This document shows positions 5,722-21,546 of a stretch of 21,771 nt of DNA, one piece after another (the stretch's first letter is position 1; every line of letters begins with the position of its first letter). The notes beneath the pieces were generated by a model. The model worked only from the letters and a program-made list of their open reading frames with translations. It did not search any database and had not been told where the DNA came from. This stretch comes from a virus, in IMG/VR virus record IMGVR_UViG_3300035181_001449, positions 1 through 21,771 of that record; one strand, given 5' to 3'. The position numbers and the translations under genes were made by a program.

Positions 5722-6894
5722 TTAGAAATCAATCAAGTTTCCTTCATCAACAGTAGTGTCAAGTACATTGATCAAGTAGTCAGTCAAGTCTTTTTCTTGT
5801 GGAGCAGCTTGAGTATCTTCTGCGCTCAACCAAGTTGTCATCCAACCGAACGGATCAGCATTAGTGTCATACTTTGGTTTCAACCCTACTGACTTCATGC
5901 GCTTGTTGGCGATAAACTCAAGATACTTACAAAGCAAGTTCTCATTCAACCCGATGATTGATCCATCTTTAAAGAGATACTTAGCCCAGTCTTTCTCTTG
6001 TTGTACTACTTCATCAAAGAGTGCAATTACAGTGTCAGCTTCTTCTTCAATGATCTTCTTAAAGTCAGGATCATTTTCTTTTTTCAAATTTCTAAGAATG
6101 TTTACAGTAATCCCTACATGCTGTGCTTCATCACGCGCAATCAACTTGATAATGTCAGCATTCCCTTTCATCTTCCCTTGTTGACCAAATGCAAAACTAC
6201 AAGCAAACGATACGTAAAATCGAATTGACTCTAACGCATACACAGAGAACAGAGCTAGATAAAGCTTTCGCTTCAGCTCATACATAGATAGAGTTAGCTC
6301 TTTCTTGTCAGGTGAATTACCCAGTGCATTACCTGTAGCAGGATCAATCTCACAACTTACAATCTCATGATAACCTGGACCAAGAACTCTAACTTGCTCG
6401 GAATACTGAATAAAATCATCATAGTAGTGTACAATCGTGTTTGCTCGACTCATGATGTTTTCATCATCGATGATCGTATCAAACACGATTGACGGATCTG
6501 GGAAAATATTCTGTAAGATCCACTGGTAAGATTGTGAGTGAATCTGCTCAAATGCAGCCCACCAGATCACTGTAGCTTCAAGCTCAGGTAAACTGATCCA
6601 GGGTAAGAACGCGATCAAGGGAGCATGTTGATTCACAGAATCAAGTAACACCTGGTAAGAGATGTTCTTCATGAAGATATGTTTTTCATGAGGTGCTAGA
6701 GATTTAAAGTCACTAGCATCTTTCTGTAGACTGATCTCTTCAGGATTCCAAAAGAAGCTCTTTTGAAGCTTTGTTTGTTTATTGAATATTGAGTACTTTT
6801 GAATATCATATCGTGCAATGTTCTGATGTTCACCGAAGAACATCGGTTGCTGATTCAAGACAACTTTGTTAACGTTAAAAACACTGTATTCCAT
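5722..6894 (-). CDS. nrdB: Class Ia ribonucleotide reductase, beta subunit
   Basis: 390 residues, close to E. coli and T4 NrdB in length and sequence. The di-iron ligands are present: Asp62 (SDFKSL), Glu116 and His119 (FEQIHSQSY), Glu222 (ALESIRFY), and Glu256/His259 (ARDEAQH). The radical tyrosine is Tyr123. The protein should therefore form the tyrosyl-radical cofactor and hand it to NrdA for making deoxynucleotides. The C terminus, DEGNLIDF, is where beta subunits dock on alpha; it ends at the Phe, shorter than E. coli, and resembles the LLEF tail of four other proteins here. The start follows the upstream stop by 3 bases, with GAGG inside the last codons of the upstream gene. Confidence 0.96.
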   Translation of the reverse strand: MEYSVFNVNKVVLNQQPMFFGEHQNIARYDIQKYSIFNKQTKLQKSFFWNPEEISLQKDASDFKSLAPHEKHIFMKNISYQVLLDSVNQHAPLIAFLPWISLPELEATVIWWAAFEQIHSQSYQWILQNIFPDPSIVFDTIIDDENIMSRANTIVHYYDDFIQYSEQVRVLGPGYHEIVSCEIDPATGNALGNSPDKKELTLSMYELKRKLYLALFSVYALESIRFYVSFACSFAFGQQGKMKGNADIIKLIARDEAQHVGITVNILRNLKKENDPDFKKIIEEEADTVIALFDEVVQQEKDWAKYLFKDGSIIGLNENLLCKYLEFIANKRMKSVGLKPKYDTNADPFGWMTTWLSAEDTQAAPQEKDLTDYLINVLDTTVDEGNLIDF

Positions 6895-7521: not shown

Positions 7522-8679
7522 TTATAATTTACAAGCACCGTCACAACCGCCTGATTCTTCTACATCTTCATCTATTGAAGCTTGTTCAGTTACATAATCA
7601 TCAGTGTGATCTTTTTCACCCTTGGTGTTTACATAATAGCGAGTTTTTAGCCCAAGCTTGGTGCACAGTAAAAAGTGATTGATCAAAACTTCAAGAGGGA
7701 TCTTCTTTTCAAGGTTTCCGGTTTGAGCGTTTATCTTTTCATAGTGATCTGGATTGTAAGAAAGATTGGCTGAAATCGATTGACAAACAAATTTCTGAAA
7801 TACAGCAGCATTCTTAATGTAGCCGTTCATTTGAGAAGCGTCCATGTCCCAGAGATAAGTGTACTGGTTCTTTAGCTTTCCGACTTCAGGTACAACTTGC
7901 ACAAATGAAACTTTCTTGTTTGATTTCTTGATGATCAAAGAACGAATCGGTTCTATTCCATTCGTAGCGTTAGTGACGAAACTAGAGCTTTCAGCAGGCA
8001 TCAATGCTAACAGAGTTGAGTTATAAACTCCATATTGCTTAACTATATCTCTCAATGAATTCCAATCACAGTGAAGTGCTTCATTAGTAATGCTATCAAC
8101 TTCTTTGTTATAAGAATCAATTAAGAGTCCACCTGTAAGATAGATCGTATCTTTGATCCCTTCAATTGATCCTCGTTCTTGTGCCAATTTATTTGAAGCT
8201 TTTAGCGAATAATAATACATCTGTTCTGCAAGACGGTGAGTTATATCATAACTTTCTTGATCGTAATATTTCACTCCGTTCTTTGCTAAAAAATATGCAT
8301 AGTTTATGATCCCGATTCCAAGCGGACGATAAGTCATCGTTGCTCTGCGAGCTTGTGGTGCTTGATAATCTTGATAATCAAGGATCTCATTTGTGAATCG
8401 AACTAACAGTTCCATTCTCTTTTCCATATCTTTTGGATCATTCAAGTCAAGGTTACCAGCATTAATTGCAGCAAGAGTACAAAGCTGTACAAGTCCTTCA
8501 AAATCAACGGTTCCGTGGCTATCATCAATAGTTCTCACAGAGTTTAAGATAGGTTCAGTAGGTAACGCAATCTCTACACAATTATGAACTAACACTTCAT
8601 TAGCATAAAAATTATGAACTTTATCAACAGTAATATCATAGACTGGTGATTTAATGTTTATCTTTTCAACTTTTATCAT
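7522..8679 (-). CDS. nrdA: C-intein fused to the C-terminal half of NrdA
   Basis: 385 residues: a 33-aa C-intein, then 352 aa of class Ia RNR alpha subunit. The C-intein ends VLVHN and is followed directly by CVEIALPTEP, where the Cys (residue 34) equals E. coli Cys439, the thiyl-radical residue, and Glu36 equals Glu441. Cys67 (LVQLCTLAA) equals Cys462, Tyr348-Tyr349 match the radical-transfer pair, and the tail GGCDGACKL carries the C-terminal redox cysteines (three residues between them instead of four as in E. coli). After trans-splicing with the product of 8774-10414, a full 786-aa alpha subunit would form. The ATG is the first possible start after a stop; AGG lies 11 bases upstream, a weak site. 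Confidence 0.95.
   Translation of the reverse strand: MIKVEKINIKSPVYDITVDKVHNFYANEVLVHNCVEIALPTEPILNSVRTIDDSHGTVDFEGLVQLCTLAAINAGNLDLNDPKDMEKRMELLVRFTNEILDYQDYQAPQARRATMTYRPLGIGIINYAYFLAKNGVKYYDQESYDITHRLAEQMYYYSLKASNKLAQERGSIEGIKDTIYLTGGLLIDSYNKEVDSITNEALHCDWNSLRDIVKQYGVYNSTLLALMPAESSSFVTNATNGIEPIRSLIIKKSNKKVSFVQVVPEVGKLKNQYTYLWDMDASQMNGYIKNAAVFQKFVCQSISANLSYNPDHYEKINAQTGNLEKKIPLEVLINHFLLCTKLGLKTRYYVNTKGEKDHTDDYVTEQASIDEDVEESGGCDGACKL
8581..8679 (-). other. Split intein, C-terminal part
   Basis: 33 residues with intein blocks F and G: VYDITVDKVHNFYANEVLVHN followed by Cys+1. The penultimate His and terminal Asn needed for Asn cyclisation are present. Its size equals known natural C-inteins (about 30-40 aa). 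Confidence 0.93.
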
Positions 8680-8773
8680 ATTGTTTTCTACCTAATTTCT
8701 ATTCTTCTGTTATTGTTGATTCATTTAATTGCTTAGATTGTTTAAGAGTGTCAATAATTCATATCTCCCCCAT
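8680..8773 (-). other. Spacer between the two nrdA genes
   Basis: 94 bases separate the stop of the N-half from the start of the C-half. No endonuclease gene is present. It contains GGGGAG close to two short aborted starts, and one frame reads IIDTLKQSKQLNESTITEE before TAG (8758-8699), which looks protein-like but lacks an intact start. It may be the leftover of a deleted insert. Confidence 0.5.
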
Positions 8774-10414
8774 CTATGATTGGAGATATTTATACTCACT
8801 TATATCAAGTTCATCAGTTTCTAGTAGATCTTGAGCTTCAACATATCCTCTTTTTGTGTATATTAAATGATCAGGGGTACATGTTATTGTTATACCAAAT
8901 TGATCATCTATCACCTTAATAATTTCTGCTGATGATGAGGTTTGAGCAAAATTTGTAATTAGATTCCATTCTTGTAAATTTGTGTCTATATTTTTAGATA
9001 AAACATAGAGACCATCAAGTGTGTATCCCTCAAGGTCTTTAATATTAATTGTCATTGGATTTAACCCAATAGAACTATAACTAACACATATTTGAGTGTC
9101 ACCTGTTACACACAAATTACTCATGTAGATCGGAAGATTGAAGGGAGTGTGAGAGTTTACATTATCAGCTAAGAAAGCATAAAGTCTACCAGTCTCTTGA
9201 GATTCTTTCAAGAAAGTAGTTAGCAGCTCACGACCTGAGATTGTCTTCTTATGCTTAATATTAGGATCTTTTTCATATTTCTCATAAAGACGTTCAAACT
9301 CACTACGGTCTTTACCAAAGAAAGCTTCATATAGATCAGGAACTTCATTCGGTGAAAATAAAGTAACATCTTGTTTCTTAACACAACGTCGAATTAGATA
9401 AGAATCCCATTGAATTGCATAATCAAGACGACGAACACGAGTTTCATGAGTACCCTTATTGTTCTTAAGAACCATCACATCTTCGATCTCATGGTGCCAT
9501 ACTGGAAAATATATGGTTGCCGAAGCGTCTCTAATTCCACCTTGTGAACATGACTTGATCGCGCTCTCAAATTTACGAAAATAGGGTACTACCCCTGTGT
9601 GAACTACTTCACCCTTCCCTACTTTTGATCCCTGTGCTCGAATTCTACCACCATTTATCCCAAGTCCAGCACGTTTTGAAGAGTATTTGGTCATAAGTTT
9701 TGTAGCGTCTGTAATTGACTCTAAAGAATCATCTACGTCAATTAATACACAAGACGAAAATTGTTTTGTAGCAGAACGAAGACCACCTAAAACAGGTGTA
9801 GGAAGTGACACTTGAAACTTAGACACAGCATCATACATGTCACGTACGTACTGTAAGCGAGTGCTATTTGGATATTTATGAAAGCCTGTAGCACACATCA
9901 CCATAAATGCAATTTGTGGAGTCTCAAAGAACTGCTTAGTTCCGCGATCTTGAATCAAGTACTTATCCTTGATCTGCTTGATAGCAGCAGCTGTTAGCTT
10001 AAAATCACGATCATGTTTAAGATAAGATCCTAACTTTACCCACTCGGCTTCAGAATACCACTCCAATAGTGCAGCATCGTACAAACCTTGAGCTACATTT
10101 TCTTTAACTATGTCATATAAACGTCGAGGTTCATAGCTCCCAAACACTTTTTTACGTAAATCAAATATCATCATCCTTGCTGCAGCATACTGATAATTTG
10201 GAGATTCTTCTGAAATTAAATCTTCAGCAGCAGAAGTAGTAATATCATGGATTTCACCTGTAGTGATCCCATCATAGAATTGAATGTGTGATTTCATTTC
10301 AATATCACTTACCGAAACTCCAGCTAAATCTTCGCAAGCCCATTCTAAAACTCGGTGCATCTTTTCAACATCAAGAGATTCTTTAGTGCCATCCCGTTTA
10401 ATTACATTGATCAT
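8774..10414 (-). CDS. nrdA: N-terminal half of NrdA fused to N-intein
   Basis: 546 residues: 434 aa of class Ia ribonucleotide reductase alpha, then a 112-aa N-intein. Residues 1-90 form the ATP-cone allosteric domain (VIKRDGTKE...; AARMMIFDLRKKVFG). Cys222 in KQFSSCVLI equals E. coli Cys225. The extein stops at YMSNL, where Asn433 equals Asn437 of E. coli; the catalytic Cys is supplied by the other gene. The half-protein cannot be active alone. The ATG at 10414 has only a weak site (TATGAGTATAA); tandem direct repeats lie about 80-115 bases upstream. TATAAATA occurs at 8787-8794 near the end of the gene and could drive the C-half separately. Confidence 0.95.
   Translation of the reverse strand: MINVIKRDGTKESLDVEKMHRVLEWACEDLAGVSVSDIEMKSHIQFYDGITTGEIHDITTSAAEDLISEESPNYQYAAARMMIFDLRKKVFGSYEPRRLYDIVKENVAQGLYDAALLEWYSEAEWVKLGSYLKHDRDFKLTAAAIKQIKDKYLIQDRGTKQFFETPQIAFMVMCATGFHKYPNSTRLQYVRDMYDAVSKFQVSLPTPVLGGLRSATKQFSSCVLIDVDDSLESITDATKLMTKYSSKRAGLGINGGRIRAQGSKVGKGEVVHTGVVPYFRKFESAIKSCSQGGIRDASATIYFPVWHHEIEDVMVLKNNKGTHETRVRRLDYAIQWDSYLIRRCVKKQDVTLFSPNEVPDLYEAFFGKDRSEFERLYEKYEKDPNIKHKKTISGRELLTTFLKESQETGRLYAFLADNVNSHTPFNLPIYMSNLCVTGDTQICVSYSSIGLNPMTINIKDLEGYTLDGLYVLSKNIDTNLQEWNLITNFAQTSSSAEIIKVIDDQFGITITCTPDHLIYTKRGYVEAQDLLETDELDISEYKYLQS
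8777..9112 (-). other. Split intein, N-terminal part
   Basis: 112 residues starting CVTGDTQI (block A, Cys1 nucleophile) with block B at TCTPDHLIYTKRGYVEAQDL (Thr and His of the TxxH motif). It stops at a TAG with no endonuclease domain. The length matches known N-parts of natural split inteins such as gp41-1 and NrdJ-1 (roughly 90-110 aa). Confidence 0.93.
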
Positions 10415-10722: not shown

Positions 10723-11925
10723 CTAAAATTCTAACAATGAGCTCTCTTGACAGTCAATTCTTTGTGCAAGATTACTTTGCATCAAGAACGTTGAGTTACT
10801 TAGCTTGCTCTCTCCCTTGATAAACTTAATAACTTCTCGAACCATGTCACTACCTGTACTCACAGGCACATTCTGACAAACATGATTTTCACATCCACTA
10901 GTAAGCTCAAAATCATTTGGTAAACCCATCAAGTGCATGGCTTCTCGAGTAGTGATCACCCGATCTTCAGTCGGGTGAATTGCTAAGAAGGTCCTAGCAA
11001 TCAAAGTAGAAAATTCAGCTGAACCCCTATAGATCGGAAAGCTACTGTCCCAAAATCTACCACCTGTTAATGTCTTCTCAATGATCCTCCCGGCTTCTTT
11101 GGCTTGACGATGATATCCATTTGTGAGTAACCAATCTCTGGCTTCAGCTAATTGATCAGTTGCCAACAAATAAGATGTCATGGTAGTACCTCGAGTATCT
11201 GTGTCATCAAGAAACTTTCTTATCATGTCAATTCCAGTACCTTGATACTTTGTCTGCAAGAAAATTACAAAGGGATCAGCTGCTAAGTGTTCTCGCGCAT
11301 TGTCAAGATCTTCTTGGGTATGATGTTTAACTCCTACAGGAACTTCACTTAGATAATCAGATAAGTTCTTCAGAGGCTTACGGTAATAATCAAAGATCGG
11401 TGCTGTAGAATCTCGCCAAAAGAAATAGAACGATCTTTTACGGTTTTGTGGAATTCCATGAAACATGGTATTAGTATGATAAAGTGAGAATGAATAGCCG
11501 TTCTTCTCAGCTGTAGCTCGTAATTGCTCACGAACATGCTTACCTGAATTTGTGTAGAGAGCTGACGCATTTTCACCCCAAAACACCTTAGGACGAACTT
11601 CTTCAGTTACTAAACGAGCAGTTTCAAGCATCCAATAGTTCATTTGATCACGGTGATCTTGTGATCCATTACTTAATTGTGAAAGACCTGCACAAGGGCA
11701 AAGAGCTTGAACAAAGTCAGTGTCTTGATGTAGCTTAGGGTCAAACCCACCGTAATTTTCAGTGTCTAATAGATAGTGTGGAGTTTCTGGAAAATAACTT
11801 TTAACGTTCTGTTCATTTTCAGTAAATGGAGTGTATGAGATCAAGAAAGCAGGATCTACACCTGTGACCTTCTTTGCAGCTACAGATAATCCGCCGATCA
11901 GTGGAACAGCGCAGCCATGTTTCAA
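10723..11925 (-). CDS. C5-cytosine DNA methyltransferase-like protein with LLEF tail
   Basis: 400 residues with the ordered motifs of C5-cytosine methyltransferases: motif I IGGLSVAAKKVTG (10-22), motif IV LCPCAGLS (75-82) with the catalytic Pro77-Cys78, motif VI GENA (117-120) and motif VIII IPQNRKR (158-164). Near the C terminus CQNVPVSTGSDM fits motif X. It should attack C6 of cytosine and transfer a methyl, or act as a variant that installs another group. Start is TTG at 11925 with AAGGAA seven bases upstream; no in-frame ATG fits. The segment between motifs VIII and X is long and probably holds the target-recognition region. The last residues, QESSLLEF, match three neighbours. No endonuclease partner is visible, so self-protection or hypermodification is likelier than restriction. 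Confidence 0.85.
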   Translation of the reverse strand: MKHGCAVPLIGGLSVAAKKVTGVDPAFLISYTPFTENEQNVKSYFPETPHYLLDTENYGGFDPKLHQDTDFVQALCPCAGLSQLSNGSQDHRDQMNYWMLETARLVTEEVRPKVFWGENASALYTNSGKHVREQLRATAEKNGYSFSLYHTNTMFHGIPQNRKRSFYFFWRDSTAPIFDYYRKPLKNLSDYLSEVPVGVKHHTQEDLDNAREHLAADPFVIFLQTKYQGTGIDMIRKFLDDTDTRGTTMTSYLLATDQLAEARDWLLTNGYHRQAKEAGRIIEKTLTGGRFWDSSFPIYRGSAEFSTLIARTFLAIHPTEDRVITTREAMHLMGLPNDFELTSGCENHVCQNVPVSTGSDMVREVIKFIKGESKLSNSTFLMQSNLAQRIDCQESSLLEF

Positions 11926-12003
11926 TTTAATTTCCTTTAAGATCTTGTTATGCTAATATTTATGCAAGGTAGCGTTGTTACACGTGAATCTCTGCTTTCT
12001 TTG

Positions 12004-12150
12004 CTAATAAGATCTCACTCTTAGTCTGTTTACCCCACCACCATAAGTATAGAGAACGTTATTTGGTGACATCAAAAGACATGTCTCACCCGTATATTCT
12101 TTACCTTCCTCACGATCAATGTGAAGGTTTAAATTATCAAGGGTACACAT
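12004..12150 (-). CDS. Hypothetical 48-aa protein (uncertain)
   Basis: The ATG overlaps the end of the HAD gene by 14 bases and gives 48 residues (MCTLDNLNLHIDREEGKEYT ... ending NRLRVRSY). Composition is protein-like to about residue 39 (NNVLYTYGGG). The next frame over then becomes the better coding frame: it reads RSLYLWWWGKQTKSEILL and on to AEIHV before TAA at about 11975. The switch, at a G-rich run, suggests a frameshift or simply two short spurious frames. No strong ribosome-binding site precedes the ATG. It fills most of the gap between the HAD and methyltransferase genes. Confidence 0.35.
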   Translation of the reverse strand: MCTLDNLNLHIDREEGKEYTGETCLLMSPNNVLYTYGGGVNRLRVRSY

Positions 12151-12526
12151 GTCTCATGTTTTCTTTATTTGTTAAATTATGCACTAAAAGCACTACATGA
12201 ACGTCAGGGCACTCTCTACGAATCACTTCAGCTTGTACCTCATCATCTTCAAAATGAACAAGCACCTTAGTCCCATTAGAAAACAGCCATTTGATGATCT
12301 TTGCTTTATGTTTACCTGACGTCTCTCTAGATTTCTGATCATATGTCAAACTATTATAAAACACAGAATTTTTGATTCCACGATCAGCTAGCATTGCAGA
12401 AGTTTCAAGTTCTTCTTCAAAGCTTCTACCTGTGATGATAATATCTGTCGGACCTGGGTAAATACCACCAACATCCTTATTGATGAAAATTACTCCATCT
12501 ATATCATACGTATTACAAGTTTTCAT
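12137..12526 (-). CDS. HAD-superfamily phosphatase-like protein
   Basis: 129 residues with the HAD order of motifs: YDIDGVIF with Asp8 (nucleophile) and Asp10, TGR at 32-34 as motif II, a basic cluster GKHKAK at 71-76 for motif III, and FEDDE at 92-96 as motif IV. There is no room for a large cap, so it is a minimal type, likely acting on a small phosphate ester or a nucleic acid end. GAGGG overlaps the glycosyltransferase stop nine bases before the ATG, so translation is coupled. Next to a glycosyltransferase and with an inositol-phosphate synthase elsewhere in the window, removal of phosphate from a sugar or inositol phosphate is a plausible role; polynucleotide 3'-phosphatase is another. 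Confidence 0.75.
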   Translation of the reverse strand: MKTCNTYDIDGVIFINKDVGGIYPGPTDIIITGRSFEEELETSAMLADRGIKNSVFYNSLTYDQKSRETSGKHKAKIIKWLFSNGTKVLVHFEDDEVQAEVIRRECPDVHVVLLVHNLTNKENMRHVYP

Positions 12527-12535
12527 GCTATTCCC

Positions 12536-13741
12536 TCAAAATTCTAGCAAATTATTGGAAGTTTTTGTTCTAGCTGAAGCTAAAAGCACATCTAATCTAG
12601 CTCTATCTTGCTGTGCTAACAGACGATTTTTAATATACTCACCCTGTACAGAAATAACTTGCTCTCTAAAACTAAGATCTTGTAATTTCTTGTAAAGTGC
12701 TTCAAGTTCAGCTAAATTAGAAAAATAAAACTCAGGGTGATCTGGAAAGATCATTCTTGTTTGATCTGTCTCAGTATATACTAACACAGGTAGCCTAGCA
12801 ATGAAACAATCATATACTGTCTTGTTTACATAAGCACAAGATTTAGTACCTTTGCCGATAAAGACATATCCAAGATAGTTTGATAGGTGTTGAAAGTACT
12901 CAATCGTATCACCTACGATCCCTTCATTCACACACTGAACTCCCGGTAACGTAAACTCAGTATTAGTTTGAATCGTAAACTTCACTGACGTGCTTTGAAC
13001 GTCTTTAAGAAGATCTTGAAACACTTTCTTACGTCCAGAATTTCGATGTTCTATAAACCCGATCCAATACAAAGAATCTTTTATACTTGAGGCTGGAATA
13101 AAATCTTTAACTTGATAAAACTTCTCAAGCACTTGAAAGAACAGATCATCACCCAAGTATAATGCTTGTTCACAGATCTTATCTGTGAACAGTGGCATCG
13201 GTTTACGTACTAAATACGTATCCTTTACCCAGTCAAACTGATCACGTTCACCGTTCACTAATAAGTAAAAACTATTGTAATTGATCTGTGGAGTCTGTTC
13301 AAGATCAGTGATCAGTTCAGAATTTCTAGTGGAAAAAGCAAGATCAGTCTTAGCTCTGCTGAGCACCATCTCTTGATAGTCAAAGATCTCATTCTCAGAA
13401 TCACCTGAACGATACAAGATCGGAGTACCTTTATTTGAATAGTATGACACAAACTTGTAATAATTTACAAATGTTCTTGACACCATCCCACCAAAAAAGT
13501 TTGACATGTTGGTAGAGTTCCACGCGATGATCGCATCATAATCATCTAAAGTCTGATCTGACTCGATTGAATACTTGAAATCAAGATCATACCTCTTGAA
13601 TAACGATTCAGCTCTACTCATACACTTGATCACGATAACCTGACTGGGTTTGATCATGTTTACAAGCTCATTCAAGAAGAGCAATTCACTGTTGATCTTT
13701 TTCACTGTAGGATCAAAGTGAATTAAGATACCAAGCTTCAT
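12536..13741 (-). CDS. Glycosyltransferase-like protein (T4 AGT-like) with LLEF tail
   Basis: 401 residues, almost the length of T4 DNA alpha-glucosyltransferase (400). The N terminus (MKLGILIHFDPTVKK) and later alternation look like the two Rossmann domains of a GT-B enzyme. In the second half, LYWIGFIEHRNSGRKKVFQDLL aligns in my memory with T4 AGT's RWIGRTTTWKGFYQMF, and KTVYDCFIARLPVLVYTETD with its LELGACGTIPVFWKST; both end with an acidic-helical tail. It probably transfers a sugar onto modified bases in phage DNA. CGGAG lies six bases before the ATG. The last residues, KTSNNLLEF, form a flexible tail matching three neighbours. Family assignment is by eye; a sugar transferase acting on other targets is possible. 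Confidence 0.65.
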   Translation of the reverse strand: MKLGILIHFDPTVKKINSELLFLNELVNMIKPSQVIVIKCMSRAESLFKRYDLDFKYSIESDQTLDDYDAIIAWNSTNMSNFFGGMVSRTFVNYYKFVSYYSNKGTPILYRSGDSENEIFDYQEMVLSRAKTDLAFSTRNSELITDLEQTPQINYNSFYLLVNGERDQFDWVKDTYLVRKPMPLFTDKICEQALYLGDDLFFQVLEKFYQVKDFIPASSIKDSLYWIGFIEHRNSGRKKVFQDLLKDVQSTSVKFTIQTNTEFTLPGVQCVNEGIVGDTIEYFQHLSNYLGYVFIGKGTKSCAYVNKTVYDCFIARLPVLVYTETDQTRMIFPDHPEFYFSNLAELEALYKKLQDLSFREQVISVQGEYIKNRLLAQQDRARLDVLLASARTKTSNNLLEF

Positions 13742-13777
13742 GTTTACTCCGAAAAATCTTTTAAGAAAAACTTAACA

Positions 13778-14047
13778 TCATTTTTTAGTTAGTTCATCAT
13801 ACTTTAAGATGATTTGTTTAAGCTGACTTACTTGTTCTTTACTCATACTGGTAACGTCCCAGTGACCATACTTACACTTGTAACCAAAAACGTATTTGAC
13901 TGCAACCCAGATTCTCTGAAAAATTGAACGATATTGGCAGAGAAAGGTGCTAAGATAGATAGTCTGTTCATCAGCATCGATCGTAAACCGCAGAGTGTGC
14001 TCGTCACTTCCACAGTCACACTCAATAAAATAGCTACCGTCTAGCAA
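13778..14047 (-). CDS. Conserved small phage protein, 89 aa
   Basis: 89 residues (first codon TTG). CDCGSDEHTLRF at about 10-21, then the pattern YLSTFLCQYRSIFQRIWVAV and KYVFGYKCKYGHWD, resembles a short protein found in many phages and prophages with a CxC, a beta strand, and an RI..A.KYVFGY..KYG signature. Its function is unknown to me. The TTG start is preceded by GAGGAG at seven bases, an excellent ribosome-binding site, and overlaps the end of the upstream 68-aa gene by 14 bases. It ends 36 bases before the glycosyltransferase start. Confidence 0.75.
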   Translation of the reverse strand: MLDGSYFIECDCGSDEHTLRFTIDADEQTIYLSTFLCQYRSIFQRIWVAVKYVFGYKCKYGHWDVTSMSKEQVSQLKQIILKYDELTKK

Positions 14048-14240
14048 GTTGAATCTCCTCTAACATATCATCAATGCGATGTGCTCTATCTCTTGTCTTG
14101 ACTAGTTTATTCATGTTTGGATAAAATCGTGCAAAATTCAATTTTTGATTAAACTCGTCACGTTTCAACCAAATGACAAACCAGATCCAATCGCTCAAAC
14201 CGACGTGTTTAATCTCATGATACCACTTAACGAGTAGCAT
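14034..14240 (-). CDS. Hypothetical 68-aa protein
   Basis: I start this gene at ATG 14240 (MLLVKWYHEIKHVGLSDWIW), which overlaps the DksA-like stop by 14 bases and has GGAT nearby, in preference to a longer form that would run deep into the upstream gene. The protein is basic and aromatic (KWYHEIKH, DWIWFVIWLKRDEF), ending in a helical charged tail, MLEEIQLARR. Its last codons carry the ribosome-binding site of the next gene. Overlaps on both sides support it being real. No family recognised. Confidence 0.6.
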   Translation of the reverse strand: MLLVKWYHEIKHVGLSDWIWFVIWLKRDEFNQKLNFARFYPNMNKLVKTRDRAHRIDDMLEEIQLARR

Positions 14241-14451
14241 GTCTATCCAGATATTCTGCGCAGTCGATACACAATGTAGCGCTAGGTATCGCTTTTTTAC
14301 GAGCTTCACCGATCGGTTCACCACACTCTAAGCAAACTGAAGTTAGTGAAACTTTCTGTGTGATTTCTCGGATCTGATCTAAACGCTTATCAACTGCAGC
14401 CTGTTGGATCATGAACGGTTCATCATCTTCTGTTACTTGTACTTCATTCAT
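14227..14451 (-). CDS. TraR/DksA-like zinc finger protein
   Basis: 74 residues, the size of short phage TraR/Orf82-type proteins. The C-terminal part has a C4 zinc finger: CLECGEPI (Cys40 and Cys43) and CIDC (about 61-64), with the family's EARKKAIPSATLC between them. The N terminus is a helix (QQAAVDKRLDQIREITQ) that would enter the RNA polymerase secondary channel. Such proteins mimic DksA-ppGpp and redirect host transcription. The classic DxxDxA tip is not obvious here. GAGG lies eight bases before the ATG. A double-hairpin region upstream (14467-14530) may regulate it. Confidence 0.85.
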   Translation of the reverse strand: MNEVQVTEDDEPFMIQQAAVDKRLDQIREITQKVSLTSVCLECGEPIGEARKKAIPSATLCIDCAEYLDRHATR

Positions 14452-14466
14452 GTCAAAATCCTCTTA

Positions 14467-14530
14467 TTAACATGTTTGAATCTTGACTAAAGACCCAAAC
14501 ATGTTAACCCTAAAAATTTTTAGGGTTAAC
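14467..14530 (-). promoter_or_regulatory. Two overlapping, mutually exclusive hairpins
   Basis: A perfect 28-base palindrome occupies 14503-14530 (half-site GTTAACCCTAAAAA). A second inverted repeat pairs TTAACATGTTTG (14467-14478) with 14496-14507. The two share bases 14503-14507, so only one can form at a time. On the plus strand the palindrome is followed by TGTTTTTTT, a terminator tail. On the minus strand the element lies between the 104-aa gene and the DksA-like gene, a suitable position for attenuation or RNA processing. Confidence 0.6.
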
Positions 14531-14537
14531 TGTTTTT

Positions 14538-14852
14538 TTACCAGGTATGAAGATTTGATCCCACTTTAACAACTTCACGCTTACCTTCAATGATCATAAA
14601 ATCAGCAGACATGTTTGCTTTAGCTTGAGCTCTCTTAATCATGGCGCGAACATCACTTTCCCAAGCACCTTTTACAGGACCGTACTCTACTTCAGCACAG
14701 ATCACTGCATGTTTATCCTTACCAGAGATAGTAGATTTCTTAACCTTAAGCTTTGGGCTTACTTTACTCATAATATTGTCAATCACTGACTTTTCAACAT
14801 TACCCATTACAACTTTACACTTGTACTTTGCTACGTCTTTTTCTTTAAACAT
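14538..14852 (-). CDS. Hypothetical 104-aa basic protein
   Basis: 104 residues, Lys-rich (MFKEKDVAKYKCKVVMGNVEK; SPKLKVKKSTISGKDKH), with a mixed alpha/beta pattern and ending VKVGSNLHTW. There are no metal or nucleotide motifs. AGGAG sits seven bases before the ATG. It is the first gene after a long structured leader (14853-15058) driven by a good promoter, which suggests abundant or controlled expression. The basic charge would suit nucleic-acid binding, but that is inference. No family recognised. Confidence 0.7.
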   Translation of the reverse strand: MFKEKDVAKYKCKVVMGNVEKSVIDNIMSKVSPKLKVKKSTISGKDKHAVICAEVEYGPVKGAWESDVRAMIKRAQAKANMSADFMIIEGKREVVKVGSNLHTW

Positions 14853-15058
14853 TTTACAGCTCCTATGATGTCAACTACTACACACGCCCTAAAGGACATG
14901 GCTTGCCCACTCCCATGACCAACAAGCAAACATTACTTGATCTCTTGATTTTACTAGTCATTTTCTGTAGGCCATTGGGATCTCTCCCAAGTCCGCTATT
15001 GCACCGGACTATACTACTTTTAATTACTCTGATAAGATCATTTTACTAAATGATTAGT
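14853..15058 (-). ncRNA. Long structured 5' leader or small RNA
   Basis: About 205 bases between a promoter and the 104-aa gene hold no ORF but several pairings on the minus-strand RNA. GTCCG/CGGAC closes a 9-nt loop (14991-15009). It abuts TTGGGA-GAGA-TCCCAA (14975-14990), a hairpin with a GNRA tetraloop. Further on, GCTTG (14923-14927) can pair with CAAGC (14901-14905), while GGTCATGG (14913-14920) can pair with CCATGTCC (14894-14901), an interleaved H-type pseudoknot order. TTTACTA/TAGTAAA (15042-15061) lies at the presumed start. No tRNA features are present. It could be a riboswitch-like leader, an autoregulatory site or a processed RNA. Confidence 0.55.
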
Positions 15059-15064
15059 AAAGAA

Positions 15065-15070
15065 ATTATA
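15065..15070 (-). promoter_or_regulatory. Extended -10 promoter for the leader and 104-aa gene
   Basis: The minus strand reads TGTTATAAT: TATAAT with the TGn extension, and TTTTCA 17 bases upstream matches four of six -35 bases. Transcription would begin near 15058 and produce a leader of about 205 bases. The same extended -10 form occurs before the AAA+ ATPase gene. Confidence 0.55.
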
Positions 15071-15140
15071 ACATATCATGAATATCTTGAAAATTTATAA
15101 CACTAACAAAAGAGCTACCGTAATCTGAAGTGCAACATTT

Positions 15141-15374
15141 TCACTCGTCGGTGACACGAATCCACTGGCCCAGCACTTCCTTGAAGCAGTGCTGGCACAG
15201 GTCCAGCTCTACTTCATTGCCATCACCGAATATGGAGTAGTATCCCCCACGGAATGCAATGGATATGTGTTCGTCCCATTCTCCATCGCAGCACTGCTTC
15301 TTCATCTCTTGGCCGCAGCGGTCGCAGATGATGGCTGTAACCTGTGAGGTAATGATTTGTTCGAGTTTCAACAT
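15141..15374 (-). CDS. Zinc-ribbon protein of bacterial type, 77 aa
   Basis: 77 residues with CDRC (Cys17, Cys20) and CQHC (Cys60, Cys63) flanking GGYYSIFGDGNEVELDL, a zinc ribbon around a small beta domain. I know this pattern (C.RCG ... FGDG..+.LDLCQ.C) from short bacterial and plasmid-borne proteins of unknown function. AGAGGAAG lies about eight bases before the ATG. The gene is clearly richer in G and C than its neighbours, with codons such as CTG, CGC and GGC that are rare elsewhere here, so it was probably acquired recently from a bacterial genome. It sits beside a decayed ORF in an intergenic island. Confidence 0.7.
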   Translation of the reverse strand: MLKLEQIITSQVTAIICDRCGQEMKKQCCDGEWDEHISIAFRGGYYSIFGDGNEVELDLCQHCFKEVLGQWIRVTDE

Positions 15375-15487
15375 TGATGGCTTCCTCTTGAATCTATTCT
15401 TACTGTTAATCTTTCCGACGTCTGAACCATGCTCGTCTTACTGCTTATTACCAGCGGTGCCCAGACGGCGAAGCTCTGTCTAATATC

Positions 15488-15685
15488 TCAGCTCTTTATA
15501 TCTACTTGAATTTTAATCTTTAGCAGTTCTTCATGACTATCATTCATGTTAATTTTAAGCCCAACCTCACAGAGAGCTAAGGCTTCTCATAAGCTTCTTA
15601 CCCTCTTGGTGAAGTCAAGGGTTTCATGCTTCATAAACACGTTCTTGAACCCAAATGGAAGGTCTCCAAGTGAATCAGTATTCAC
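15488..15685 (-). pseudogene. Decayed ORF with in-frame TGA
   Basis: From a GTG at 15685 the frame reads MNTDSLGDLPFGFKNVFMKH ... KRVRSL (32 codons), then TGA at 15587-15589, then continues protein-like in the same frame (EALALCEVGLKINMNDSHEE ... VDIKS) to TGA at 15488-15490. Composition is consistent on both sides of the stop. No good ribosome-binding site precedes the GTG. The frame is closed upstream by another TGA near 15703. The gap 15375-15733 holds no intact gene, so this is best read as the remnant of a gene brought in with the neighbouring zinc-ribbon gene. Family unknown; it may also be chance. Confidence 0.4.
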
Positions 15686-15733
15686 CGGTGATAAGATTTG
15701 TAGTCATTTATAGAAAATAAAACATTTTTAATG

Positions 15734-16876
15734 TCAGAATTCAAGTAGACAAAGAGCTGAGCTATTTGTTGCCTGTAACTTCTGCATCTTGAACTCATCA
15801 GGAGTGACAGGATTTCCTTCTTCACGAAGTCGAATTGTAGTAAGATCTGGGTCTACTCCGCATCGACGTCTTTCTATTAAATGTGGATTATTTTTCAAGC
15901 GATCATAGATACCGTACTGGCAGTGTCCAACTTCAGTGGCATAAACCATGAATTTATTCTGATCAAAGCTAAACATCTTCTTGCCATTGTTCTCTATGTT
16001 ATATAGAGCTGGATGAAAATAAACTTGAGGATAAAGTTTTTGTTGATTCTGTTCAATCCAAATGATCAACTCACCGTACGGCATCTTTTTGATCTTTTCT
16101 TTAAGCTTAGGAAACATCAAATTTAAAGTATGACAAGCTCCAGGGCCAGGTACGCAGAACTTTTCATCATGGTGAAATTTTGTCCCAGGAGTCAATGAAC
16201 TATCAACACCCAAGTGATATCCATAATAAGCCCCGATCCCATATACCGAGTTGATCTTAGTATAAGCTTCTTCAAGAGTCTTTGCGCCAAGGATTTCATC
16301 AACTAATCCAGAAGTAATAAATCCAGCAACCCACTCAGCGATATCAGTGTTAGACGCGGGTCGGTCTTGATCACTGTACTTTGTTCTACAGAAGTTTCTA
16401 GCTGCGGTCTGTAAGGAGGTATGTAGCTCAGTGGTGCCATAAAACTTAAATCCATGACTTTTTGCATATCTTGCATTGTCATACATCCACTCAACATAAG
16501 CCGCATCAGAGTTGATTTTGTTGAAATCAAGATGGGCTTCCTTTGGATTTGTCTTACCCGTTAACAAACTATTGATACATCTACCACCGTAAAGGTGAGT
16601 AATGATAGAATTGCAGAGCTTGTTTTGAGGAGATAACGAATCTTCTAACACAATGTTATGCCCAATGTAACGCATTCGATCATCACCGGTGATATTGAAG
16701 TGAAAGTACTCTACCTCTTCACCTAAAGCTGCATCACCGTCAGTGCTGTAACTAGGAAGAACTCCCATCTTGTAAAGTAAACGTTCATTTACCTTAATAA
16801 AGAAATGTTCAACCTCTTTTACTCGATTCCAGTCAAGTGAAGCTTCAATCTGCGGGATGATATTAATGTAAGACAT
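15734..16876 (-). CDS. HMUDK helical-domain / AGPT-pyrophosphorylase-like protein with LLEF tail
   Basis: 380 residues. The pattern YGIGAYYGYHLGVDSS (212-227), DEKFCVPGPGACHTLNLMFP (237-256) and EVGHCQYGIYDR (315-326) is that of the helical domain predicted by Aravind and colleagues in thymidine-hypermodification systems (5-hmdU DNA kinase helical domain, alpha-glutamyl/putrescinyl-thymidine pyrophosphorylase group); I also see YGGRCIN at 96-102, matching the family's GGR..N. Such proteins act on hydroxymethyl-uracil bases in phage DNA. No kinase P-loop is fused. The tail NSSALCLLEF matches three neighbours. The ATG comes 2 bases after the upstream stop, without a good ribosome-binding site, so translation depends on coupling. 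Assignment is from remembered signatures. Confidence 0.65.
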   Translation of the reverse strand: MSYINIIPQIEASLDWNRVKEVEHFFIKVNERLLYKMGVLPSYSTDGDAALGEEVEYFHFNITGDDRMRYIGHNIVLEDSLSPQNKLCNSIITHLYGGRCINSLLTGKTNPKEAHLDFNKINSDAAYVEWMYDNARYAKSHGFKFYGTTELHTSLQTAARNFCRTKYSDQDRPASNTDIAEWVAGFITSGLVDEILGAKTLEEAYTKINSVYGIGAYYGYHLGVDSSLTPGTKFHHDEKFCVPGPGACHTLNLMFPKLKEKIKKMPYGELIIWIEQNQQKLYPQVYFHPALYNIENNGKKMFSFDQNKFMVYATEVGHCQYGIYDRLKNNPHLIERRRCGVDPDLTTIRLREEGNPVTPDEFKMQKLQATNSSALCLLEF

Positions 16877-16878
16877 GT

Positions 16879-17394
16879 TTATATTTTATCTAATTTAAGT
16901 TTTTGTGAGATCTGTTTAACTTCAAGCGCGGTAAATTCAGTTTTTGCTAAGAGGATGATCCTTGATCCAGTTTCAGTTTTAAGTTCAATATCTTTCTTAC
17001 GATATTCTGGTCGTTTAAGTTTAATCTCAGCCGTTGCTAAAGAATAAATCATGATTCGTGCAGCAGAAGCTTGATCTGCTGCTGCTAGCGCAATCACGTC
17101 ACAATTTGTTAGCTCGTTATTCGACAAGCAAGCTTCAGCTACAGTAGACATGATAGTTCTTGGTTTACCAAGTTTTGTCAAAGAAGTATCTAAGTCACTA
17201 ACTTCTTTAAATTGATCTCCAATTCTCCCAAATGATATGTTAGCAATATCAATTTTTCTTTTCACTAATTGAAGTTCTAAATATTCAACAAAGATTCCAT
17301 ATCGCTGAGATCCAAGTTTAAAGATAGCTTGATTTTCATTGATCCAATCGAAAGGAAGCGCTTTCATATCCAAGATTTCTTTTAAAGTTGTCAT
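16879..17394 (-). CDS. 171-aa protein, second copy of a tandem duplication
   Basis: 171 residues, the same length as the next gene upstream and about half identical by eye. Shared blocks are LKE-LDMKALP at the N terminus, RYGIFVEYLELQL, ANISFG, GKPRTIMSTVAEACL, CDVIALAAADQA, IYSLATAEIK and KDIELKTETGSRIIL. It looks like a mixed alpha/beta enzyme-like fold; blocks with VAEAC and CDVIALAAADQA resemble the core of GNAT-like phage proteins but no acetyl-CoA motif is certain. It ends 2 bases before the HMUDK-like gene and probably supplies its translation. Only a weak GAG precedes the ATG, which is 7 bases from the upstream stop. A third, diverged member may be at 6898-7431. Confidence 0.75.
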   Translation of the reverse strand: MTTLKEILDMKALPFDWINENQAIFKLGSQRYGIFVEYLELQLVKRKIDIANISFGRIGDQFKEVSDLDTSLTKLGKPRTIMSTVAEACLSNNELTNCDVIALAAADQASAARIMIYSLATAEIKLKRPEYRKKDIELKTETGSRIILLAKTEFTALEVKQISQKLKLDKI

Positions 17395-17401
17395 TTAATG
17401 C

Positions 17402-17917
17402 TCATAATTTCTCAAGATCTAACTGCTGGATGATATAATCTTGTTCTACCTTAGTAAATTCTATCTTAGACATCAAAATCAATCTTGAACCATTTTTAGT
17501 TCTAACTTGAATATCTTTCTTTCGAAACTCTGGTTTCTTTTGTTTAATTTCTGCCATAGCAAGAGAATAAACAAAAATTCGTTGATCTTTTGCTTGATCT
17601 GCTGCAGCTAACGCAATTACATCACACTTCATCAAGTCAAAATTTGCTAAACAAGCTTCAGCAACTGTTGACAAGATCGTTCTAGGTTTACCAAAGTTAG
17701 TAAGTTCAGTATTAATTGAACTATGATCAAAATTATAAGATTTAATCAAACCAAATGTGATGTTTGCTACTTCTAAATCTCGATCTTGTAAAGTAAGCTC
17801 TTGATATTCAATATAGATTCCAAATTGTTTATCATCAAGAGCAAAAACGCATCGTTCAGAACTAATCCAGTTATAAGGAAGAGCTTTCATGTCTAATACT
17901 TCTTTTAGACTAGTCAC
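17402..17917 (-). CDS. 171-aa protein, first copy of a tandem duplication
   Basis: 171 residues beginning at GTG (17917) with AGGTG just upstream; no ATG fits. Same block order as its downstream twin: LKEVLDMKALPYNW, QFGIYIEYQELTL, ANITFG, GKPRTILSTVAEACL, CDVIALAAADQA, IFVYSLAMAEIK, KDIQVRTKNGSRLIL. Differences are spread evenly, as in an old duplication with both copies under selection. It is the first gene after the hairpin at 17957-17993 and heads the unit that ends with the HMUDK-like gene. Function not recognised. Confidence 0.75.
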   Translation of the reverse strand: MTSLKEVLDMKALPYNWISSERCVFALDDKQFGIYIEYQELTLQDRDLEVANITFGLIKSYNFDHSSINTELTNFGKPRTILSTVAEACLANFDLMKCDVIALAAADQAKDQRIFVYSLAMAEIKQKKPEFRKKDIQVRTKNGSRLILMSKIEFTKVEQDYIIQQLDLEKL

Positions 17918-17956
17918 ACTATCACCTAAATTTCTTGTTCATAATTCATTTTATTA

Positions 17957-17993
17957 ATCACCATTTCAAAAATTTATCATATGAAATGGTGAT
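17957..17993. terminator. Hairpin, probable terminator after the inositol-phosphate synthase gene
   Basis: A perfect 12-bp stem (ATCACCATTTCA at 17957-17968 with 17982-17993) has a 13-nt AT-rich loop. It lies between the stop at 18019 and the GTG at 17917. The minus-strand tail is TAATAAAATG, poor in U; the plus-strand tail CTTTTAT is slightly better. It may be a weak terminator or an operator. Confidence 0.5.
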
Positions 17994-18018
17994 CTTTTAT
18001 GAAATTCTTACAAAATCA

Positions 18019-19248
18019 TTATTTGTACTCTACTTGAGGTTTATTAATAAGTCTTAAGTAATCCATACCACCTGCGTCAAATTCTGATTGCATGAACTCC
18101 AAAGCAGATTCTTTAGAAGTTTGTTTAGCAGTAGTTTCTGTCAATCTACGGTTTGCTAGCTCTTCACATTCAAACAGCGAATCTTCAAAAGTTAACTGTT
18201 TTGGTGGAGATTTTTGAGTGAAAGCACTAGGACCTCTCAAACAACCAACAATTCCCATCTCTTTAGCAACTTTTAGATAGCGCAGTGCATCAATCACTAC
18301 TCCAGCTGAATTTTCTGAATCTTGTACTGATAGCTTTACATCTACCGTCACAGGAGCATCACCAAAACCACGCATATGCAAATTAAAGTAAGCAATCTTG
18401 TTGTCCTTTAAGTATGGGATGAACGTTGATGGACCAGCGAACAAGGCGTCTGGATCGACAGGAATTCCACGTAAATCATTTTGAGCTCTAATTACATTCT
18501 CTTTAGAAACTTTTTTATTTGACAAACGTGATTGAACCATCATTGAATTAAAATCAGTATTCCCACCGACGTTTAATTGTTGGTGATAATCAACTTCCAT
18601 TCCTCGAGAAAATGCAAGTTCTTGTAACATCTGTGATAAGATTGAAGCACCAAACTGGGATTTCATATCAGACCCGATGTAAGGCAGGCCAGCCTCAATA
18701 AATTTTCTTTCCCATTCAGGAGCATTGATGTTAAGAACTGGAATGCAGTTCAAGAACATTACTCCAGCTTCAATTGCTGCGTTTGCATAATATTCTGTTG
18801 CCAACTGTGAACCCACAGGAAGATAGTTAATCAAGATATCAGCTTTGGTGTCCTTGAGAACCTGAACTACATCTACAGGTTCTTCATTTGATACTCTAAA
18901 ACCATACCTTTCAGGTTGATGTTCCATATAATCACTGATCCCATCTAATGGCACCCCCATGTGAACTTCAGGGCCAGCTGGAACATCTTCACAAAACACT
19001 CTAGCACAATTAGGGTGAGCAAAGATAGCCTCACCTACTGGACGACCAACCTTTCGACGATCAACGTCAAAAGCAGCAACTACTTGAATGTCAGCTGGAT
19101 GATATCCACCAATCCTAGAGAACATTACACCTGGAATTGAACGACCTTCAGCATCTTCATCGTGATCTTTGTAATACTCAAGACCTTGATACAAAGATGA
19201 AAAACAATTTCCACAGCCAGTGACTGCTACGCGTATTTTTTTAGACAT
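18019..19248 (-). CDS. myo-Inositol-1-phosphate synthase-like protein
   Basis: 409 residues, close to archaeal and actinobacterial myo-inositol-1-phosphate synthases. The NAD-binding segment VAVTGCGNCFSSLYQGLEYY (8-27) matches the family's GxGNCASSLxQGxxYY, followed by the IQVVAAFDVDRRKVG strand-helix unit. SDMKSQFGASI and NVGGNTDFNSM near the middle match the conserved catalytic region, including its Lys and Asn/Asp residues. The enzyme turns glucose-6-phosphate into inositol-1-phosphate. Phages rarely need inositol, so with the HAD phosphatase and base-modifying proteins nearby a role in making an inositol-derived DNA modification is plausible. GAGGA lies eight bases before the ATG. It has its own promoter and an approximately 170-base structured leader. 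Confidence 0.88.
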   Translation of the reverse strand: MSKKIRVAVTGCGNCFSSLYQGLEYYKDHDEDAEGRSIPGVMFSRIGGYHPADIQVVAAFDVDRRKVGRPVGEAIFAHPNCARVFCEDVPAGPEVHMGVPLDGISDYMEHQPERYGFRVSNEEPVDVVQVLKDTKADILINYLPVGSQLATEYYANAAIEAGVMFLNCIPVLNINAPEWERKFIEAGLPYIGSDMKSQFGASILSQMLQELAFSRGMEVDYHQQLNVGGNTDFNSMMVQSRLSNKKVSKENVIRAQNDLRGIPVDPDALFAGPSTFIPYLKDNKIAYFNLHMRGFGDAPVTVDVKLSVQDSENSAGVVIDALRYLKVAKEMGIVGCLRGPSAFTQKSPPKQLTFEDSLFECEELANRRLTETTAKQTSKESALEFMQSEFDAGGMDYLRLINKPQVEYK

Positions 19249-19969: not shown

Positions 19970-21076
19970 CTAAAATTCTAAAAGAGAATTTACAATCGGA
20001 GATACTGCTTCATGTTGATAATCAATCTTATGATAATCATTAAGAACGTTATTAACTAAATCCCACCTATAAAATTTTCTTGCAAGATGAACACTTCTAG
20101 GTTTTTCAAGTCGAGTTTTCATGAACTCAACTCCATCCATTTCATACCAATACTCCGGCCAAGCAAATACTGTCCAACCATTACGAGCGGCCATTTCATG
20201 TAGTTCTTCTTTGAAAATCTTCACCAGATCTTGACGTTCTTCTCTTGTCCCAAAGAACGGGGTACCTTTAAAATACCCTGACTTAGGGATCACTCTGCTT
20301 TCATCTTCAATCGGAAGAGGCGTAACAAGCTCAATCTTTTTATTAAGTGTCTTAAGTTCAGCTTCATAACGCTTTAAAAGATCTCTTGTGGCTGCAGTTG
20401 GATCTGTTTCTCGACAAAGATGATGCCGAATGTCAATATTTCCCCAGTAACATGTCAGTGAATCTATCTCAGTTAGATCATAACCATAATCAGTGATCTC
20501 TTTTGAAATTGTTTTCTTCAGGACACCGTTCAATGTGCGCCCATCTTTACGTAACATCATTGAGTTTGCAACGTAAGCTGAGTGAGAGTGAGAATCACCG
20601 ATCACTAAGTGACGAACCTTACCTGGTGCATAGTGCAAGGCAGGTTCTTTAAACCAATCTACGTTCTCACAACGCTTAGAAACACCATCCCAGTCAACGT
20701 TAGTCCAGTAACTGCCTGGTTCACCGCCCCGGGCTTTACAAAGAGCACCGTAATCAGGCATAGGGTGATCGATTGAGATATACTTGATATGAGAGTGCTG
20801 TGGATAATTTAAGCGTGAAAAATTTCTAGCAGAATATTCTACTAGACCGTCAAAGATGTTCAAATTGCCATCATCACGATAATCCATTCCGTGATAAACA
20901 AATATCGTATCATAAGCGGACCAATCACGTGAGTGGCGAGGACCGTCATAGTCAAGAACATCAACTTCAATACCTAAATTTCTTAATTGATTCGCTCTTA
21001 AGTGAGCCCAGCTCGATTGATGTGAATACTCACTTGATGCAAGTTTACGGCTAATCAAGTCAATTGCGGCTTTCAT
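19970..21076 (-). CDS. SGNH-hydrolase-like protein with LLEF tail
   Basis: 368 residues from ATG 21076, whose ATGA overlaps the stop of the acb1 gene; a start 14 codons earlier would lie inside acb1 and is less likely. GDSHSHSAY at 160-168 is SGNH block I with Ser162 as nucleophile. WGNIDIRHH at 211-219 has the Gly-Asn of block III, and His330 in RSVHLA fits the catalytic His of block V. These enzymes are esterases or acyltransferases. The N-terminal 150 residues form a separate domain with a Rossmann-like start (LGIEVDVLDYDG) and no known match. The tail SPIVNSLLEF matches three neighbours. In this setting, adding or removing an acyl group on a modified base is a reasonable but unproven role. 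Confidence 0.7.
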   Translation of the reverse strand: MKAAIDLISRKLASSEYSHQSSWAHLRANQLRNLGIEVDVLDYDGPRHSRDWSAYDTIFVYHGMDYRDDGNLNIFDGLVEYSARNFSRLNYPQHSHIKYISIDHPMPDYGALCKARGGEPGSYWTNVDWDGVSKRCENVDWFKEPALHYAPGKVRHLVIGDSHSHSAYVANSMMLRKDGRTLNGVLKKTISKEITDYGYDLTEIDSLTCYWGNIDIRHHLCRETDPTAATRDLLKRYEAELKTLNKKIELVTPLPIEDESRVIPKSGYFKGTPFFGTREERQDLVKIFKEELHEMAARNGWTVFAWPEYWYEMDGVEFMKTRLEKPRSVHLARKFYRWDLVNNVLNDYHKIDYQHEAVSPIVNSLLEF

Positions 21077-21546
21077 GTGCCCATCCAATTCAAATTTAAA
21101 GGTTCTGAATAAATGCAAATAGGAGTAAATTTTATCTGAGGAAGAGATAATTTCTTCACGTCAAGATCATCAGGGACTTCATAGGACAAGGTCACATGGG
21201 GATGATAGTCTGGATAGTCATGAGTAGCTCCTATTGTACGCAAAGCATAGTGTAAAAGCTTTAGAGCTGAAGCTTCTAAAACAAGAACTAAAGCTTTTTT
21301 ATCTCCTGAATCAAACAGATCTAATCTAATAGGATTAAATTGAAGATCAGACAATTGATCTTTCGTCAGATTTACATGATACTCATCCGCGATCTTTGCT
21401 CGACTATAAATGATTGTAGTATGTAGATTAGATAGCTCAATTGGGTTTGGGATCTTTTCAAGATTAAACCAATCGTTCAGTCCTTCCAACTTTTCGGGAT
21501 CATACTTACAAGCAACGTAAGTTCCGGATTGACGTTCTTCCATCAT
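21073..21546 (-). CDS. acb1: Anti-CBASS cyclic-oligonucleotide nuclease, Acb1 family
   Basis: 157 residues, nearly the length of T4 Acb1 (gp57B, about 152). It is a 2H phosphoesterase with two HxT motifs: LHTTIIYSR (His42, Thr44) and HPHVTLSY (His117, Thr119). The surrounding pattern also fits T4 Acb1: SGTY at the N terminus (Tyr10), LDLFDSGDKKALVLVL, ATHDYPDYHPHVTLSY, and a C-terminal Glu148 with Trp154 matching the nucleotide-binding Glu and Trp. Acb1 cleaves the cyclic di- and trinucleotide signals made by bacterial CBASS defence, so infection is not aborted. Both ends are ATGA-type overlaps with neighbours, so it is translated within an operon. The start has GGAAG seven bases upstream. 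Confidence 0.9.
   Translation of the reverse strand: MMEERQSGTYVACKYDPEKLEGLNDWFNLEKIPNPIELSNLHTTIIYSRAKIADEYHVNLTKDQLSDLQFNPIRLDLFDSGDKKALVLVLEASALKLLHYALRTIGATHDYPDYHPHVTLSYEVPDDLDVKKLSLPQIKFTPICIYSEPLNLNWMGT

What the first reader, a model, noticed from the sequence alone, without database searches (positions are those of the whole stretch)
7522..10414. nrdA is a fractured gene: a trans-splicing split intein sits directly before the catalytic thiyl-radical cysteine
Seen: the N-half ends SNL then a 112-aa N-intein beginning CVTGDTQI with block B TCTPDHL; the C-half begins with a 33-aa C-intein ending VLVHN followed by CVEIALP. Joined exteins give a 786-aa NrdA with all catalytic residues. 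Known: E. coli NrdA has Asn437-Leu-Cys439-Leu-Glu441 here, so Cys439 is the +1 nucleophile of splicing and the active-site radical residue. No active NrdA can exist without splicing. Such fractured genes with split inteins (gp41-1, NrdJ-1, NrdA types) were first found in marine metagenomes. This pair looks intact and may be a new natural split intein.
Basis: partly seen in the sequence, partly recalled or inferred. Interest (0 to 1): 0.8.

Follow-up and report, generated by a model that had tools for sequence, protein, structure and literature searches.

The report
Split-intein-fractured phage ribonucleotide reductase gene
A virus of bacteria carries its DNA-building-block enzyme (ribonucleotide reductase) as two genes whose products must be joined by a self-cutting protein splice exactly at the catalytic cysteine; this is a genuine new example of an arrangement that turns out to be common in phages, here caught after the parasitic nuclease gene that usually sits between the halves has been lost.

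Summary
NrdA is encoded as an N-half (8774-10414, minus; 434 aa extein + 112 aa N-intein) and a C-half (7522-8679, minus; 33 aa C-intein + 352 aa extein), with all splicing motifs intact. The joined exteins give a 786-aa class Ia NrdA with every catalytic residue. The +1 residue of splicing is the catalytic cysteine (E. coli Cys439). A syntenic relative on a 389-kb contig (L176, 82% identical N-extein) has an uninterrupted NrdA reading ..SNLCVEI..: the empty site, which fixes the insertion point. The kind is not new: the same or the adjacent codon holds related split inteins in 58 distinct-sequence loci (57 besides the window), including Yersinia phage TG1 and Klebsiella phage KP13-7. Forty-eight have an open reading frame (mostly GIY-YIG or HNH nucleases) between the halves; ten, the window included, do not. 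Eight further loci are contiguous inteins. The 94-nt spacer reads as a degraded nuclease C-terminus, probably a deletion scar (moderate evidence). NrdA identity to L176 drops from 82% to 61% within eight residues of the intein and recovers 280 codons later, as expected if the intein arrived by homing with one-sided co-conversion. Splicing itself is untested.

The parts
9113..10414 (-). N-extein of NrdA (434 aa: ATP-cone, all-alpha domain, first part of barrel), ending Asn433-Leu434
8777..9112 (-). N-intein, 112 aa: block A CVTGDTQI, block B TCTPDH (TxxH)
8774..8776 (-). stop codon TAG of the N-half, in the loop of an 8-bp hairpin (fold not better than shuffles)
8680..8773 (-). 94-nt spacer with no endonuclease gene; one frame reads IIDTLKQSKQLNESTITEE*KLGRKQY, similar to the C-terminus of endonucleases between the halves in relatives (L158 DTLKNSKQ..GRKYG; L017 DKLKISKLL..GRK): probable scar of a deleted endonuclease gene
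8581..8679 (-). C-intein, 33 aa with its own ATG: block F VYDITVDKVHNFYA, block G VLVHN (penultimate His, terminal Asn)
7522..8580 (-). C-extein of NrdA (352 aa + stop); first residue is the +1 Cys = Cys435 of the spliced protein = E. coli Cys439
5722..6894 (-). NrdB (class Ia small subunit), downstream partner gene; 71% identical to NrdB of the syntenic relative L176

Best explanation
This is a class Ia ribonucleotide reductase large-subunit gene fractured by a natural split intein. The two halves are translated separately. Their intein parts find each other and fold into one HINT splicing domain. Cys1 of the N-intein attacks the Leu434-Cys1 bond; the +1 cysteine (Cys435, E. coli Cys439) takes over the N-extein; Asn cyclisation at ..VHN releases the intein; and an ordinary 786-aa NrdA results, with the splice nucleophile becoming the radical-bearing catalytic cysteine. 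Shown from sequence: gene layout, motifs, exact site, empty site in a near relative, recurrence. Inferred: the splicing reaction, and the history. For the history, a split intein with an associated homing endonuclease entered this phage lineage from a sister lineage, co-converting about 280 codons downstream, and the endonuclease gene was then deleted, leaving the 94-nt spacer.
For: Layout and lengths. Intein homology to NrdJ-1 and other inteins; Pfam Intein_splicing. Extein integrity and residues. Empty site in L176 and L177. Same layout in 57 other distinct-sequence loci, same site in Yersinia phage TG1. No group I intron in Rfam. Spacer similar to HEG C-termini (8 of 2000 shuffles as good). 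HEG loss seen directly elsewhere: L038/L039 have near-identical inteins with and without HEG, and the L041 spacer is a HEG with its middle deleted. Mosaic step at residue 442, support interval 417-448, ending near residue 724 (gain 19.4 lnL with two change points; one change point gives 15.4 against at most 7.6 in 300 shuffles; control pair 1.2).
Against: No splicing or expression data. The HEG-remnant match is moderate: 8/2000 against C-termini, but 16/300 against whole HEGs. The mosaic tract could instead lie in L176; the data do not polarise it, and no donor was found. The window is a 21.8-kb fragment, so a second reductase elsewhere in the genome cannot be excluded.
Confidence: 0.93

Rival explanations
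1. Genes-in-pieces without splicing (as in Aeromonas phage Aeh1): the two polypeptides assemble and work as a split enzyme, and the intein segments are dead tails.
For: Such a case is known for NrdA (cited). Splicing was not tested here.
Against: All splicing motifs are intact in window and relatives. The C-intein would sit directly before the catalytic cysteine. Intact inteins at this point in many lineages indicate purifying selection on splicing.
Confidence: 0.03
2. Assembly or sequencing error: truly one continuous cis mini-intein gene.
For: Contiguous inteins at the same site exist (8 distinct). Spacer is short.
Against: Spacer has several stops in all frames. C-half start codon is at the position conserved in split relatives. 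Nine other short-spacer split loci were found.
Confidence: 0.02
3. Group I intron or other RNA-level splicing joins the halves.
For: RNR genes of phages often carry group I introns (PMC3653736).
Against: No Rfam match in the window. A 94-nt spacer is too short for a group I intron (general knowledge). Flanks encode intein, not extein, right up to the spacer.
Confidence: 0.01
4. Decaying pseudogene: the split marks loss of nrdA.
For: Degenerating intein-laden nrdA is suggested for Campylobacter phages (PMC3653736).
Against: Both halves are full length with all catalytic residues. NrdB follows intact.
Confidence: 0.02

Closest known systems
Yersinia phage vB_YenM_TG1 nrdA (KP202158, YenMTG1_233/232/231)
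   Same: Same insertion point (QSNL|C..VHN|CAEI), two NrdA genes each bearing half an intein; N-intein 31% and C-intein 45% identical
   Different: Carries an HNH homing endonuclease gene between the halves; the annotation does not mention an intein
Klebsiella phage KP13-7 and Campylobacter phages vB_CcoM-IBB_35/CPt10 nrdA inteins
   Same: Split intein in the same active-site motif
   Different: Inserted one codon later (SNLC|C..HN|CEI), so the +1 residue is the cysteine after the catalytic one; ORF or HEG between halves; further interruptions in the gene
Fractured genes of Dassa et al. 2009 (doi 10.1093/nar/gkp095; includes nrdA, e.g. NrdA-2)
   Same: Conserved phage enzyme broken in two by a split intein; 7 nrdA and 2 nrdJ cases with inteins from Global Ocean Sampling data (cited in PMC3653736)
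   Different: Those loci have a free-standing endonuclease between the halves (own knowledge; paper not held), here lost; sequences could not be compared directly
NrdJ-1 split intein (PDB 8ubs)
   Same: Best solved relative of the joined intein, E 4e-16; fast, efficient trans-splicer (PMC7090010)
   Different: From class II NrdJ, not class Ia NrdA; only moderate sequence similarity
Aeromonas phage Aeh1 nrdA genes-in-pieces
   Same: nrdA in two genes
   Different: Split by a homing endonuclease with no intein; peptides work unspliced (cited)

Membership tests
Natural split intein | Block A with N-terminal nucleophile (Cys1) | tested here: met
   CVTGDTQI, aligned in all relatives
Natural split intein | Block B TxxH | tested here: met
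   TCTPDH, invariant C-T-x-D-H columns
Natural split intein | Blocks F and G with His-Asn and a +1 Cys/Ser/Thr | tested here: met
   VYDITVDKVHNFYANEVLVHN|C; V-H-N-C invariant
Natural split intein | Halves encoded by two separate genes | tested here: met
   stops in all spacer frames, own start codon for the C-half
Natural split intein | Protein trans-splicing occurs | not testable with these tools
   needs co-expression
Fractured-gene arrangement (Dassa et al. 2009) | Conserved enzyme broken in two by a split intein at a catalytic motif | tested here: met
   site fixed by empty-site relative L176, SNLCVEI
Fractured-gene arrangement (Dassa et al. 2009) | Free-standing endonuclease gene between the halves | tested here: not met
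   94-nt spacer without a gene; only a probable degraded HEG C-terminus. It is therefore described as an endonuclease-less derivative.
Class Ia NrdA | Catalytic residues C225, N437, C439, E441, C462, Y730, Y731, C754, C759 (E. coli numbering, established knowledge) | tested here: met
   C218, N433, C435, E437, C466, Y749, Y750, C780, C784 in the spliced product
Group I intron | Conserved intron RNA fold in the interrupting sequence | tested here: not met
   no Rfam match in the window

The most novel reading that the evidence does not exclude
The split persists after the endonuclease is gone because it has been put to use. For example, trans-splicing at the radical cysteine may gate when active reductase appears, or the break may let the two halves of NrdA be exchanged as modules between phage lineages; the mosaic step at the intein would be such an exchange.
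Probability: 0.1. Interest if true: 0.6.

Novelty: new member of a known kind. Interest (0 to 1): 0.36.

Why it matters
It adds a natural split intein whose splice nucleophile becomes the catalytic residue of the host enzyme. More usefully, it comes with an empty-site relative, many endonuclease-bearing relatives and nine other endonuclease-less ones. These make the life cycle of fractured genes (arrival by homing, endonuclease loss, persistence or re-fusion) testable in one gene. The intein itself could be tried as a protein-ligation tool.

Tried and rejected
Direct comparison with Dassa 2009 sequences: paper not held. Close relatives through the C-half protein: none. megablast of the whole window against phage records: no match. 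T4 late promoter TATAAATA upstream of the C-half: present but not above chance. Hairpin around the N-half stop codon: fold no better than shuffles. AlphaFold of the N-half without an alignment: mean pLDDT 33.7, unusable. Charge segregation of the halves: N-intein -11, C-intein 0 in the window, but only 37 of 58 split loci have N more acidic than C, so weak. HEG remnant tested against whole HEGs rather than C-termini: 16/300 shuffles as good, so claimed only as probable. Tree of inteins: too short for deep placement; the window has no starred neighbours. Contiguous inteins: most share one linker; L134 looks like a re-fusion, not pursued.

Full report
What is there. On the minus strand, nrdA is in two open reading frames. 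The N-half (8774-10414) is 546 aa: 434 aa of NrdA followed by a 112-aa N-intein. The C-half (7522-8679) is 385 aa: a 33-aa C-intein followed by 352 aa of NrdA. Pfam places ATP-cone, all-alpha domain and the first part of the barrel in the N-half, and Intein_splicing plus the rest of the barrel in the C-half. Joined at SNL|CVEIALP, the exteins make 786 aa and match class Ia NrdA structures over nearly their whole length (E 7e-235 to 7mdi, 4e-233 to E. coli 2r1r). The class Ia catalytic residues are at C218, N433, C435, E437, C466, Y749, Y750, C780 and C784 (E. coli equivalents from established knowledge). The +1 residue of splicing, C435, is the thiyl-radical cysteine (E. coli C439).

Is it an intein, and is it intact? 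All blocks are present: CVTGDTQI (A), TCTPDH (B), VYDITVDKVHNFYA (F), VLVHN|C (G). They align with relatives in which V-H-N-C and C-T-x-D-H are invariant. The joined intein is nearest, among solved structures, to NrdJ-1 (E 4e-16), Spl DnaX (1e-10) and gp41-1 (1e-4). No Rfam family, and so no known group I intron, matches the window.

Is the split real? The 94-nt spacer has stops in all three frames. The C-intein starts at an ATG 33 residues before the junction, and 33 is the modal C-intein length in the 58 split loci. The two-gene layout recurs in isolates: Yersinia phage TG1 at the same point with an HNH endonuclease gene between, Klebsiella KP13-7 and Campylobacter IBB_35 one codon later.

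How common is it? Profile scans of IMG/VR, with junctions read from six-frame translations, gave, with the window and the isolates, 66 distinct inteins at this active-site motif with both ends found. In 48 the halves are separated by 300 nt or more, with an open reading frame between; 10 (window included) are split with a short spacer or overlap; 8 are contiguous. Fifty-four sit at SNL|C and 12 one codon later at SNLC|C. Of 47 intervening proteins scanned, 26 match GIY-YIG and 5 HNH. So the arrangement is an abundant phage phenomenon. Its discovery belongs to earlier work: Dassa et al. 2009, cited in PMC3653736 as reporting 7 nrdA and 2 nrdJ with inteins in ocean data. NrdA-2, previously identified by metagenomics, was later put in a splicing library (PMC7090010).

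Empty site. L176, part of a 389,331-bp contig, has the same neighbours (methylase, kinase-like protein, NrdB, AAA ATPase; 57-71% identical). Its NrdA is one uninterrupted 785-aa gene reading FMSNLCVEICLP, and no relative of the N-intein was found anywhere in that record. L177 (60% identical) is also uninterrupted. The intein is therefore sporadic and sits precisely between Leu434 and Cys435. The window is probably a fragment of a similarly large phage (inference).

How it may have arrived. Identity between the window and L176 NrdA is 82% up to residue 442, 61% from there to 724, and 83% after. The change point (support interval 417-448) includes the insertion point. One change point gains 15.4 log-likelihood units against at most 7.6 in 300 shuffles; the L176/L177 control gains 1.2. 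In other NrdA pairs the two halves differ far less. This fits homing with one-sided co-conversion of the downstream flank (inference). The data do not show which of the two genomes received the tract, and no donor was found.

How the endonuclease may have gone. One frame of the spacer reads IIDTLKQSKQLNESTITEE*KLGRKQY. HEG C-termini in relatives read DTLKNSKQSKNHPGDGWYKGRKYG (L158) and DKLKISKLLKKEEVTMDWTIGRK (L017). Against the last 40 residues of the HEGs the match beats all but 8 of 2000 shuffles; against whole HEGs all but 16 of 300, so this is probable, not proven. The process is plain elsewhere. L019 and L154 keep clear remnants. L041 keeps a HEG start joined to a HEG end. L038 and L039 have near-identical inteins with and without the HEG. 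L134 looks like a split intein fused back into one frame.

Verdict. The object is a new member of a known and common kind, distinguished by the missing endonuclease, the empty-site relative and the mosaic flank. Splicing and enzyme activity remain to be tested at the bench.

Noticed in passing
window 10723-11925, 12536-13741, 15734-16876, 19970-21118 (all minus); L176:3406-4614, L200:1603-2649: Four proteins end in the same four residues LLEF: a C5-cytosine-methylase-fold protein, a 5-hmdU-DNA-kinase-like protein and two unassigned ones. In the relative L176/G001 the kinase homologue (57% identical) ends GLLEF and the methylase homologue ALLSF. T4 sliding-clamp-binding epitopes are short hydrophobic-acidic C-termini, and T4 alpha-glucosyltransferase binds the clamp. 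A shared clamp tether for DNA-modifying enzymes is a lead worth its own study.
   Followed up: partly
window 10723-19248 (minus): Likely DNA hypermodification set: methylase fold, polynucleotide-kinase-like protein, 5-hmdU DNA kinase helical domain, myo-inositol-1-phosphate synthase.
   Followed up: no
window 21073-21546 (minus): Acb1 anti-CBASS protein (Pfam PF23474, E 3e-31).
   Followed up: no
window 16879-17394 and 17402-17917 (minus): Tandem duplicate of a 171-aa protein; the DNA is 71% identical over 259 nt; a weak match to phrog_6387 was seen for the first copy, the only one scanned against PHROGs.
   Followed up: no
L102, L121, L147, L151, L134 and relatives: Contiguous and HEG-split inteins at the same NrdA site are interleaved in the intein tree: a possible data set for the direction of intein splitting and re-fusion.
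   Followed up: partly
L021:5025-7125: Fractured nrdA with C-intein ending VLVSN|CQEI: Ser instead of the penultimate His.
   Followed up: no
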